Positions 35,340 to 37,583 of a stretch of DNA of 64,000 nucleotides are shown here, one piece after another. Origin of the DNA: Halobacteriales archaeon QS_4_69_225 (GTDB lineage Archaea; Halobacteriota; Halobacteria; Halobacteriales; Haloarculaceae); the NCBI GenBank assembly GCA_003020965.1, contig PXRL01000009.1, positions 142,786 through 206,785 of the forward strand, in the 5' to 3' direction. Positions within the stretch are counted from its first letter, which is position 1; every line of letters begins with the position of its first letter. The position numbers and the translations under genes were made by a program. The notes beneath the pieces were generated by a model. That model was not told where the DNA came from. It ran no database searches and saw only the letters and a list, made by a program, of their open reading frames with translations.

Positions 35340-35798
35340 ATGCACGTCTCCGTCATCGGCGGCTCCGGCGTCGGCGAGGAAACCTACGAGACGGCCCGCG
35401 AGGTCGGCCGGTTGCTCGGCGCGCGCGGCCACACCGTCGTCTGCGGCGGCCGCGGCGGCGTCATGGAGGCGGTCTGCCGCGGCGCGCGCGAGCGGGACGC
35501 CGAGACGATCGGCATCCTGCCCGGCGAGCGCCGGAGCGTCGCCAACGACTGGGTGACCACGCCCGTCGTCACCGGGATAGGCAGCGCCCGCAACCGCATG
35601 GTCGTCCTCAACGGCGACGCGGTCGTCGCCGTCGACGGCGCCACGGGGACGCTGTCCGAACTCGGACACGCCCTCGACTGCGGCCGCCCGGTCGCCGGCC
35701 TCGACACCCACGACGTCGACCTCGCGGGGTTCGAGGCCGTCGAAACGCCCACGGCCGCCGTCGACTACGTGGAGTCGTCGGCCGACAGCCACAGGTAG
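35340..35798 (+). CDS. TIGR00725/LOG-like nucleotide-binding protein
   Basis: A 152-residue Rossmann-type protein: VSVIGGSGVGEETYETAREVG near the N-terminus, then VVCGGRGGVMEAVCRGARE (the GG-RGG-M-E motif of lysine-decarboxylase-like/LOG proteins) and GIGSARNRMVVLNGD, and TLSELGHAL, which replaces the usual PGGxGTxxE. This is the TIGR00725 subfamily. A nucleotide or cytokinin-type phosphoribohydrolase activity is possible but unproven. Its 3' end overlaps the convergent small membrane gene by 34 bases. Confidence 0.83.
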   Translation: MHVSVIGGSGVGEETYETAREVGRLLGARGHTVVCGGRGGVMEAVCRGARERDAETIGILPGERRSVANDWVTTPVVTGIGSARNRMVVLNGDAVVAVDGATGTLSELGHALDCGRPVAGLDTHDVDLAGFEAVETPTAAVDYVESSADSHR

Positions 35799-35995
35799 AC
35801 CGCCGCCAGCAGGTTCGGAACGGCGAGCAGCCGCACCCGGCGGATCGACGCCGCCGTCGGCTCGAACTCGACCCGCAGCACCGTCGCGTACCCCCACCGT
35901 GCGGCCGACAGCAGGGCCCGCGGCGCGACGGCGTGGGCGATGGCCGCCAGGACCCCGGCGACCGCCAGCAGTCGGCGTATCGTCGATTCGTCCAT
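35765..35995 (-). CDS. small hypothetical membrane protein
   Basis: A 76-residue protein with two or three hydrophobic segments (LLAVAGVLAAIAHAVAPRAL and LLAVPNLLAAVYLWL) separated by a basic loop. Codon use is coding-like. The last 34 bases overlap the LOG-like gene on the other strand. Not assigned to a named family. Confidence 0.6.
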   Translation of the reverse strand: MDESTIRRLLAVAGVLAAIAHAVAPRALLSAARWGYATVLRVEFEPTAASIRRVRLLAVPNLLAAVYLWLSADDST

Positions 35996-36070
35996 GCGCG
36001 GTCGAGGGGCGGAGCGGGGAGAAACCGCCGGGTACCGGCCCGGGTTGCCGGCGGTCGCCCGACCGCCCGG

Positions 36071-36823
36071 TCACGCCACCGTCCGGGTCGTGTGCTCCTT
36101 GTAGGCCCGCCGCTTCAGACGCCGGTACCGCTCCCGGGAGTCGACGGCCCACTTGTACTCGAAGCCCGCCGGCGGGTCGCCCATCCACTCGACGAGCGCC
36201 TCCGTGTCGTCACAGTCGAACCGGAGTTCGTTTCGCTTGAACGTCGGGTCGAAGCCGACCTCCCGGAACAGGGAAACGAGAAAGTCGCTCCGGTCGCTCT
36301 CGTTCCGGGCCTTGATCTCGATCCGGGGCCGTCCCCACCGTCCGACGTCGAGGTAGCCGTCTGAAACGTACCAGAACTTCGCCAGAGTCGGCGTGAGCGC
36401 GAGGTCGGTGGGGAAGTGCTTCGAACCATCGGGGTACCACCGTCGGCGGAGGTCCTCGAAGAAGGGATTCGTCCGCGACCAGACGGTGTGCATATCGTGG
36501 TAGTTCTCCGTTTTGGCGTCCGGACTGAACCCCGTTTTCCGATTATTCTCCGCCAGTTCTGCCGCCGTCTTCTTCATCGACACGCCGGTCGTCAAGATGC
36601 CCATTCGGTCGTCGAACCACCGAAGAAACCGACGGTTCGTCATCGGGAGGCGAAATACCGGAGAGTTACCACCACTGGGGCGGGGTATCGACCCATCGCC
36701 CATCAGTAGACCGATTAGAATCTCTCGCCGTCTCTTGTCGATGTCCGGATACGGACACGTACCGTGCCACCAGTGAAGACCGAGACGCTCGAACTGTTCA
36801 CCACAGGATGGACACGTCGCCAT
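36071..36823 (-). CDS. free-standing LAGLIDADG homing endonuclease with N-terminal zinc finger
   Basis: A 250-residue endonuclease candidate. The first 26 residues form a metal finger (CPSCGEQF, then HWWHGTCPYP). Two LAGLIDADG helices follow: EILIGLLMGDGS near 35-46 and AKFWYVSDGYL near 148-158, each with the catalytic Asp. A single-chain, two-motif enzyme of this length should make an asymmetric cut. Base composition is lower in GC than the neighbours and codons include AAT, ATT and GAA in plenty. It lies 16 bases after the pcna stop, same strand, and is not inside an intron or intein as far as can be seen. Its target may be the pcna 3' end. Confidence 0.85.
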   Translation of the reverse strand: MATCPSCGEQFERLGLHWWHGTCPYPDIDKRRREILIGLLMGDGSIPRPSGGNSPVFRLPMTNRRFLRWFDDRMGILTTGVSMKKTAAELAENNRKTGFSPDAKTENYHDMHTVWSRTNPFFEDLRRRWYPDGSKHFPTDLALTPTLAKFWYVSDGYLDVGRWGRPRIEIKARNESDRSDFLVSLFREVGFDPTFKRNELRFDCDDTEALVEWMGDPPAGFEYKWAVDSRERYRRLKRRAYKEHTTRTVA

Positions 36824-36839
36824 GCGTCTTTTATTCGCC

Positions 36840-37583
36840 TCAATCGCTTTGAATTCTGGGGGCTAACATATAGGTTGCGTGACCGTCACCTTCCGCGAAG
36901 CTGAAGTGCATCTTGACGGGGAACTCCTCGCCGAGTTCGGTCGTCACCTCGGCGTCGGAGGGGATGGCCTTGTTCATGTCGTTGAGGTAGTCAAGCGAGA
37001 ACAGCGAGCGGGCCTCGCCGGCCGACAGCGAGATGAGGTCCTCGCGGCCGAGTTCGAGGTGGACGTCGTCGGTGTCGCCTTCGGCGTCGACGTAGAACTC
37101 CTCGTCGTCGGGGTCGACGCCCAGCGCGATGTGGTCGCTCACCATGTCGGCGGCCGTCACGGCGCGGGCGATGTCGCGGCCCTCGATGACGATCTCCGCC
37201 GAGAGGTCCAGCTCCGGGAGGTCCGGCTCCTGGCGGATGGAATCGGGGTCGATGAGCGCCAGGGTGTACTCCAGGCCGTCGAGGGAGATGTGGAGCTTGC
37301 GGGTTTCCTCGTCGAGTTCGAGGTGGACCAGCTGGTCGGAGTCGGCCATCCCGACGATGTCCTCCAGGCGGTCGAGGTCGACGCCGATGACGCCGCCGTC
37401 GGTCTCGTAGGACTCGAAGGCCGCCGCCGACAGCTCCAGGTCGACCATCCCGACGTTGGCCGGGTCGACCGCGCGGATCGTGAGGCCCTCCTCCTCGAGG
37501 CGGATCTTGCACTCGTCGACCAGCACGCTCACGGAGTCGAGCGCCGCCCCGAGCGTGTCCGCGCTCACGATAGTCTTGAACAT
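36840..37583 (-). CDS. pcna: DNA polymerase sliding clamp (PCNA)
   Basis: Trimeric clamp that tethers DNA polymerase and other replication proteins, 247 residues. Starts [21 protein letters not shown]; inter-domain loop region around [19 protein letters not shown]-terminus [10 protein letters not shown]. The start at 37583 fits a TATA element 27 bases upstream (leaderless). The last 15 or so codons (36840-36890) use GGT, GCA, TAT, TTA, AGA, ATT, CAA and GAT, while the rest of the gene almost always ends codons in C or G. The protein sequence of this tail is normal, so it was recoded, not damaged. A homing endonuclease gene follows. Confidence 0.95.

What the first reader, a model, noticed from the sequence alone, without database searches (positions are those of the whole stretch)
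36071..37583. Homing endonuclease gene directly behind pcna, with a recoded pcna tail
Seen: the last 15 or so pcna codons (36840-36890) use TTA, AGA, ATT, CAA, TAT, GGT and GCA, while the preceding codons end almost always in C or G. The encoded tail [10 protein letters not shown] is normal. 16 bases later a two-motif LAGLIDADG gene with a zinc finger begins on the same strand. Inference: the endonuclease gene invaded the 3' end of pcna together with a substitute, recoded tail that keeps the clamp intact while destroying the cut site, in the way integrases restore tRNA ends. I recall that PCNA genes of some haloarchaea hold inteins, so this locus is a plausible homing target, but a free-standing HEG with a rebuilt protein tail would be unusual.
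Basis: partly seen in the sequence, partly recalled or inferred. Interest (0 to 1): 0.82.

Follow-up and report, generated by a model that had tools for sequence, protein, structure and literature searches.

The report
Homing gene with replacement clamp tail
In salt-loving archaea, a selfish DNA-cutting gene sits right behind the essential sliding-clamp gene and travels with a re-spelled copy of that gene's last dozen codons, apparently so that the clamp protein stays whole while the enzyme can no longer cut its own host.

Summary
Sixteen bp behind pcna (36840-37583, minus strand) lies an intact two-motif LAGLIDADG gene (36071-36823), and the last 12 pcna codons are recoded. The nearest HEG-free relative differs at 12 of 223 third positions in the pcna body but 9 of 12 in the tail, and has the same flank directly behind pcna. 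A more distant HEG-bearing relative shows the reverse: 25 of 138 and 3 of 12. Of 126 pcna ends, all 20 with the HEG or a remnant are recoded, in a block about as long as a LAGLIDADG site. Tail type follows HEG type, not pcna ancestry. In genera g20 and g42, HEG-free species often keep recoded tails, read here as immune leftovers. Best reading: an end-replacing homing element made of the HEG plus a cleavage-resistant pcna tail, like the yeast WHO elements at FBA1; I saw no archaeal case in the papers searched. Cleavage is not shown. Relatives of the HEG sit at the ends of thyX and rtcB and in haloviruses.

The parts
36840..37583 (-). pcna, 247 codons, intact sliding clamp gene
   Evidence: Pfam PCNA_N and PCNA_C; a match in 57 of 60 relatives searched
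36843..36878 (-). recoded pcna tail, codons -12 to -1; core of the block is -12 to -4 (36852-36878), the inferred cleavage-resistant copy of the endonuclease target
   Evidence: codon-position profile over 126 loci; 9 of 12 third positions differ from HEG-free L006, 3 of 12 from HEG-plus L035
36824..36839 (-). 16 bp between pcna stop and HEG start
36071..36823 (-). homing endonuclease gene, 250 aa, two-motif LAGLIDADG with N-terminal C-x2-C...H...C motif
   Evidence: PF03161; AlphaFold2 pLDDT 86.4, best PDB matches I-WcaI and I-SceI
36755..36814 (-). zinc-finger-like motif, residues 4-23
   Evidence: C4, C7, H17, C23 invariant in the 10 pcna-linked HEGs of A1; of these only C4 and H17 are invariant in A2, which adds viral relatives
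36692..36718 (-). LAGLIDADG motif 1 (LIGLLMGDG), Asp43
   Evidence: Asp43 invariant in A1 and A2; its catalytic role is recalled from the family
36356..36382 (-). LAGLIDADG motif 2 (ends in WYVSDG), Asp155
   Evidence: Asp155 invariant in A1 and A2
35571..36070 (.). right flank: DNA behind the HEG, matching the DNA behind pcna in HEG-free L006 (the empty site)
   Evidence: 90% of 494 aligned bases

Best explanation
The HEG and the recoded pcna tail upstream of it are one homing element. The enzyme is inferred to recognise and cut the conserved, GC-rich DNA that encodes the pcna C-terminus (about codons -12 to -4) in HEG-free alleles. The break is repaired from a HEG-plus copy, with homology in the pcna body on the left and in the downstream flank on the right, so the recipient gains the HEG and the donor's recoded tail together. 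Recoding keeps [10 protein letters not shown], hence the clamp, and removes the cut site, so the carrier is immune. Repair that copies the tail but not the HEG, or later HEG loss, leaves HEG-free immune alleles. Shown: the association, the block, the junction, tail-HEG linkage, purifying selection on the HEG, and decay products. Inferred: cutting, the exact site, and conversion as the mode of spread.
For: (1) HEG at pcna: of 29 loci fetched and examined, all 13 with at least 56% identity, plus the partial L057, lie behind pcna (L036 at 541 bp); 0 of 15 at 48% or less have pcna in the fetched flank. (2) Sharp block: A/T-ending codons at -12 0.80, -8 0.93, -5 0.60, -4 0.80 in 15 HEG loci, against 0.18 or less at every codon from -13 to -1 in 67 HEG-free loci outside g20; at least 3 such codons in -12..-3 in 20 of 20 HEG or remnant loci and 26 of 106 without, Fisher 7e-11; control codons -30..-21 show no excess. 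(3) Crossed similarity of window, L006 and L035. (4) Over 13 HEG loci tail distance correlates with HEG distance (0.60), little with pcna-body distance (0.22); partial 0.64, permutation p 0.0002; in 8 g20 loci 0.92 against -0.06, p 0.009. (5) On a 51-locus g20 pcna-body tree the HEG-or-remnant label needs 9 changes, at least 5 forced by supported branches. (6) In g20 tail third positions differ 4.3 times as often as the body (601 pairs), against 1.5 times in HEG-free loci outside g20 and g42 (21 pairs). (7) HEG Ka/Ks 0.05-0.15 in all 7 pairs of full-length HEGs compared. (8) HEG remnants in L047, L122, L075, L073, L128 and early stops in L070 and L003.
Against: No cleavage data. 22 of 39 HEG-free g20 loci and 2 of 3 HEG-free g42 loci also have recoded tails, so recoding is not tied strictly to a HEG next door. 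On the g20 tree the HEG label is only slightly more clustered than shuffled labels (9 changes, shuffled mean 10.9, 44 of 500 as low), so patchiness there shows turnover but no direction. No displaced copy of the old pcna tail follows the HEG in the window, as the WHO model would expect; only L047 has a possible relic. Within g1 the HEG of window and L035 is at least as diverged as pcna (Ks 0.49 against 0.32), so recent transfer between these two is not shown. thyX ends beside related HEGs show no clear recoding. Besides the tail, one other 12-codon stretch of g20 pcna varies above average (0.28) and so do codons -24..-13 (0.27), both less than the tail (0.48). L040 and L003 pcna frames are broken in their assemblies. 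Fisher counts treat related genomes as independent.
Confidence: 0.83

Rival explanations
1. The cassette is mobile, but the tail is only passively foreign: a short piece of pcna carried along from an AT-richer donor, with no selection for immunity.
For: Fungal mitochondrial mORFs carry foreign C-termini that their authors explain by horizontal transfer (PMC3630166, passages). The tail is clearly decoupled from the pcna body.
Against: No plausible AT-rich donor was seen: outside g20 and g42 only 2 of 64 HEG-free loci (L018, L032) reach 3 A/T-ending codons in the block. The window tail is poorer in GC3 (5 of 12 codons) than the HEG it travels with (0.79). Different HEG lineages carry different codons in the same block.
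Confidence: 0.09
2. The AT-rich tail is a promoter or ribosome-loading region for the HEG, not a destroyed cut site.
For: In the window the tail lies about 20-55 bp upstream of the HEG start and holds TATATG, as do several others. In four loci (L040, L069, L070, L108) the codon AGT overlaps a possible GTG start of the HEG, so at least that change may serve HEG translation.
Against: L036 has 541 bp and L037 60 bp between pcna and HEG yet recoded tails. 26 of 106 HEG-free loci have recoded tails. The heg3-type tails (L040, L069, L070, L108) lack TATATG. Promoter activity itself was not tested.
Confidence: 0.06
3. The HEG is kept as a weapon: it cuts pcna genes on incoming viruses or plasmids, and the recoded chromosomal tail is self-protection.
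For: HEG under purifying selection; relatives occur in haloviruses. PMC5867893 leaves open whether free-standing haloarchaeal HEGs give resistance to viruses (passages).
Against: Patchy presence, remnants and near-exact empty sites fit homing without extra benefit; no viral pcna target was looked for here.
Confidence: 0.02

Closest known systems
WHO elements of Torulaspora and Lachancea yeasts at FBA1 (Coughlan et al. 2020, PMC7282813; abstract and sections 9, 10, 13 read)
   Same: Endonuclease gene behind, not inside, a conserved host gene; functional unit is the nuclease gene plus the resistance-conferring 3' end upstream of it; the 3' end is hypervariable and has a different tree from the 5' part; nuclease pseudogenes; zinc-finger-bearing nuclease.
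   Different: WHO proteins are intein-like HO relatives, replace hundreds of bp, use a displaced 3' fragment as right homology and form tandem clusters. Here the nuclease is PF03161 with no intein model found, the replaced part is about 12 codons, the right homology would be the neighbouring DNA, and no clusters were seen in the loci fetched. Domain of life and target differ.
Fungal mitochondrial mobile ORFs with replacement C-termini (Glomus atp6, atp9, cox2, nad3; Allomyces atp6) (PMC3630166, passages read)
   Same: Nuclease ORF inserted with a new C-terminus for the host gene, spelled differently from the native one.
   Different: Organelle genes, native C-terminus mostly retained downstream, divergence explained there as horizontal transfer, not as a site-sized immune block.
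Intronless homing of T4 free-standing endonucleases such as SegG (PMC2988022, passages read)
   Same: Free-standing nuclease that moves with co-conversion of flanking DNA; reliance on sequence difference at the cut site is recalled.
   Different: Cut sites there lie hundreds to thousands of bp from the nuclease gene; here the inferred site is next to the gene and is replaced inside a coding end.
Free-standing PF03161 endonuclease genes in Haloferax glycosylation islands (PMC5867893, passages read)
   Same: Same Pfam family, haloarchaeal, free-standing.
   Different: Reported there without a target gene or a replaced coding end.

Membership tests
LAGLIDADG homing endonuclease (monomeric, two motifs) | Sequence family match and two LAGLIDADG motifs with conserved Asp | tested here: met
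   PF03161 E 4.9e-11; Asp43 and Asp155 invariant in 10 and in 9 sequences
LAGLIDADG homing endonuclease (monomeric, two motifs) | Fold of a pseudo-dimeric LAGLIDADG enzyme | tested here: met
   model pLDDT 86.4; Foldseek best I-WcaI 6x1j and I-SceI 5a0m, query TM 0.67 and 0.63, E about 1e-7
LAGLIDADG homing endonuclease (monomeric, two motifs) | Site-specific double-strand cleavage | not testable with these tools
   needs purified enzyme
WHO-type end-replacing homing element | Nuclease gene lies next to an intact host gene and does not interrupt it | tested here: met
   pcna open to its normal end, HEG 16 bp behind
WHO-type end-replacing homing element | 3' end of the host gene is a diverged version with a history different from the 5' part | tested here: met
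WHO-type end-replacing homing element | Replaced end makes the allele resistant to the linked nuclease | not testable with these tools
   inferred from block position and length
WHO-type end-replacing homing element | Displaced 3' fragment of the host gene behind the nuclease gene | tested here: not met
   no stretch with 5 of 7 matches to LAPRIQS within 1.5 kb behind pcna in the window; the only possible relic is in L047, directly behind the pcna stop
WHO-type end-replacing homing element | Nuclease of the intein-like WHO/HO/VDE family | tested here: not met
   only LAGLIDADG_2 passed its Pfam cut-off; no intein model listed at E <= 1
Intein or intron-encoded homing endonuclease | Nuclease gene inside a self-splicing insert within the host gene | tested here: not met
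   HEG lies outside the pcna frame with its own start and stop
T4-type intronless homing | Free-standing nuclease with a cut site distant from its own gene | tested here: inconclusive
   free-standing, but the inferred site is adjacent and is not mapped

The most novel reading that the evidence does not exclude
Haloarchaea and their viruses share a class of end-docking homing elements that take the ends of essential genes as targets (pcna 3' end, thyX 3' and 5' ends, rtcB 5' end, viral polB). Their cycle of invasion, decay and tail-only conversion drives hypervariable synonymous spelling of essential gene ends and leaves HEG-free immune alleles in circulation: a natural record of gene drive and evolved resistance in archaea.
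Probability: 0.4. Interest if true: 0.86.

Novelty: new variant of a known kind. Interest (0 to 1): 0.78.

Why it matters
If right, end-replacing homing, described from fungi in the papers read here, also exists in archaea, built on a different LAGLIDADG family and aimed at the replication clamp. It would explain a hypervariable third-position block in an otherwise conserved essential gene. It would also offer a natural system with drive alleles, dead alleles and HEG-free resistant alleles side by side in many species, which makes the homing life cycle and the evolution of drive resistance testable. It warns that short gene ends can have a different history from the rest of a marker gene.

Tried and rejected
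Considered and set aside: chance codon drift (1 of 113 ORFs on the contig); intein or intron (HEG outside pcna); promoter or translation signal as the whole explanation (L036, L037 and 26 HEG-free recoded tails); passive foreign tail.

Tried with weak or no result: thyX as a second test. HEGs lie about 50 bp behind thyX in L168, L170, L177 and directly in front of it in L051, L054 and L055/L185 (one locus fetched twice), but recoding of those ends is not clearly above HEG-free thyX genes. In that script the two thyX-linked HEG queries (labels hegT, hegF) were cut in the wrong frame, so I use only the rows made with the window HEG. The search for relics of old pcna tails gave one candidate (L047). 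A sequence search of the PDB with profile A1 gave no real relative (best E 0.42); the fold search did. The paper search listed unrelated work. In one search an error made most tails read past their stops; one search replaces it. In one search the broken pcna frame of L040 was misaligned, which inflated its body distances (also the L069-L040 row); one search repeats the test with aligned bodies, with the same outcome, and its numbers are used. Three of the ten Ka/Ks pairs use truncated HEGs (two with L003 read to its stop after 17 codons, 0.58 and 0.09; one with L070, 0.09) and are not counted. L155 has only 50 bp behind pcna, so 'no HEG' there is untested; for the other HEG-free loci it means none found in the 1.4-1.8 kb fetched. 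L003 and L040 were left out; one search used 13 of 15 HEG loci (L003 and L070 have early stops).

Full report
What is there. On the minus strand of the window, pcna (36840-37583) is followed after 16 bp by a 250-codon gene (36071-36823) that matches PF03161, LAGLIDADG_2, E 4.9e-11. The protein begins with a C-x2-C...H...C motif; these four residues, and Asp43 and Asp155 of the two motifs, are invariant in ten pcna-linked homologs. An AlphaFold2 model (pLDDT 86.4, pTM 0.82) matches I-WcaI and I-SceI best (query TM 0.67 and 0.63); that both are monomeric two-motif enzymes is recalled. The pcna tail is unusual: 10 of the 18 A/T-ending codons of pcna fall in its last 17 codons, and the last-15-codon GC3 of 0.47 is the lowest of 113 coding-like ORFs on the contig.

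Where the HEG occurs. A genome-contig scan found three relatives, in MAGs QS_1_69_70, QS_8_69_73 and QS_6_71_20: behind pcna in L003 and L004, and behind a pcna 3' part at a contig end in L002. A search of 392 genomes of the order gave 46 with a match at E <= 1e-5. I examined the 29 loci it newly fetched: all 13 at 56% identity or more, plus the partial L057, lie behind pcna; none of the 15 at 48% or less has pcna within the fetched flank. In one genus (g20) 13 of 52 genomes have a match, 12 of them at pcna, several as remnants. The linked families are f1, f4 and f12.

The tail block. Of 126 distinct pcna ends, 15 have an intact or near-intact HEG (13 open, L003 and L070 with an early stop), 5 have remnants, and 106 have none found. 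The excess of A/T-ending codons in HEG loci begins sharply at codon -12 and is strongest at -12, -8, -5 and -4. This block of about 27-36 bp is close to the size of LAGLIDADG recognition sites (about 24 bp for HO and VDE, PMC7282813 section 9). Counting codons -12 to -3, all 20 HEG or remnant loci have three or more A/T-ending codons, against 2 of 64 HEG-free loci outside genera g20 and g42, 22 of 39 in g20 and 2 of 3 in g42; control codons -30 to -21 show no excess.

Tail and HEG travel together. The window and the HEG-free L006 differ at 12 of 223 third positions in the pcna body, but at 9 of 12 in the tail. The window and the HEG-plus L035 differ at 25 of 138 in the body (L035 is cut at a contig end), but at 3 of 12 in the tail. 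Behind the HEG, the window's flank is 90% identical (494 aligned bases) to the DNA directly behind pcna in L006, so L006 shows the empty site. In g20, L069 and L064 have similar bodies (21 of 223) but different HEG types and tails (10 of 12), while L069 and L108 share HEG type and tail (1 of 12) with bodies 27 of 223 apart. Over 13 HEG loci with aligned bodies, tail distance correlates with HEG distance (0.60), little with body distance (0.22); the partial correlation given the body is 0.64, permutation p 0.0002; in the 8 g20 loci alone the figures are 0.92, -0.06 and p 0.009. On a tree of 51 g20 pcna bodies the HEG-or-remnant label needs 9 changes, at least 5 of them forced by supported branches (shuffled mean 10.9, 44 of 500 shuffles as low), and tail classes are scattered. 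Tail third positions differ 4.3 times as often as the body in g20 (601 pairs), against 1.5 times in HEG-free loci outside g20 and g42 (21 pairs).

Mechanism. The pattern is what a homing element would leave if its functional unit were the HEG plus a resistant pcna end: cut the unrecoded end, repair from the HEG-plus copy, gain HEG and resistant end together. HEG Ka/Ks of 0.05-0.15 in all 7 full-length pairs compared and the stops and remnants fit a cycle of spread and decay. HEG-free loci with HEG-type tails, such as L087 (tail 9 of 12 different from its close relative L086, 2 of 12 from HEG-plus L108; no HEG found; a spacer like that of L086), fit tail-only repair or HEG loss. Cutting, the exact site and conversion are inferred.

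Details of docking. In the window the right junction lies within about 10-20 bp of the point that corresponds to the pcna stop of L006. In g20 the HEG fills the space between pcna and an apparent convergent gene: the spacers of HEG-free loci are absent, and in several loci a TTATAA lies where the two ends meet (read by eye). In L040, L069, L070 and L108 a possible GTG start overlaps the pcna codon AGT; in the heg2-type loci a TTG lies 1 bp behind the pcna stop. heg2 and heg3 types of g20 differ by about 35% but share their C-terminal end, which suggests recombination between elements.

Wider family. Relatives at 35-48% identity lie about 50 bp behind thyX (L048, L049, L050) or directly in front of thyX (L051, L054, L055), and one remnant lies directly in front of rtcB (L058). 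Viral contigs gave 16 relatives and phage records 15. Halorubrum virus VOLN27B has a 44% relative directly behind its thyX, and HGTV-1 has one directly in front of polB. Recoding at thyX ends is not clear.

Known work. The closest system is the yeast WHO element (PMC7282813; [quoted passage not shown] Fungal mitochondrial mORFs (PMC3630166, passages) and T4 intronless homing (PMC2988022, passages) are further precedents. Free-standing PF03161 genes are reported in Haloferax without such a target (PMC5867893, passages). Searches for homing endonuclease with haloarchaea and PCNA, LAGLIDADG with haloarchaea and free-standing, WHO element with FBA1 and archaea, and Halorubrum with homing endonuclease and sliding clamp (listings seen) showed no title or abstract start reporting an archaeal case; the library lacks most subscription journals.

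Verdict. Observation confirmed; interpretation supported on comparative grounds, with cleavage untested. It works like a WHO element but fails two features of that group (displaced fragment, intein-like nuclease), so it is a new variant of a known kind.

Noticed in passing
L048, L049, L050 (and L168, L170, L177): Relatives of the HEG (44-48% identity) lie about 50 bp behind thyX in three genomes of one genus; the same order thyX-HEG occurs in Halorubrum virus VOLN27B (L202).
   Followed up: partly
L051, L054, L055: Other relatives (35-39%) lie directly in front of thyX, the HEG end within about 15 bp of the thyX start: a mirror-image docking at the 5' end.
   Followed up: partly
L058 18-1496 and the remnant next to it: A HEG remnant ends directly in front of an rtcB gene (PF01139).
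   Followed up: partly
L047, first 30 bp behind the pcna stop: The sequence behind the pcna stop encodes IPRIQTDSE, like a second, older pcna tail; it is the only PRIQ found in the three forward frames of up to 1.5 kb behind pcna in the loci scanned. Its HEG is interrupted and the locus has masked bases.
   Followed up: partly
g20 loci such as L087, L097, L101: HEG-free pcna genes with HEG-type recoded tails and normal spacers: candidate immune alleles.
   Followed up: partly
L038, L041, L042-L046 (g20): Two HEG types about 35% apart share nearly identical C-terminal ends, suggesting recombination between elements.
   Followed up: no
L036: 541 bp separate pcna from the HEG, yet the tail is recoded; the spacer may hold a later insertion or another gene.
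   Followed up: no
L003 2258-2984 and 3001-3060: pcna lacks about 17 codons and the HEG has an early stop in this MAG; assembly error or decay.
   Followed up: no
L203 (halovirus HGTV-1): A 36% relative sits directly in front of the viral polB gene.
   Followed up: partly
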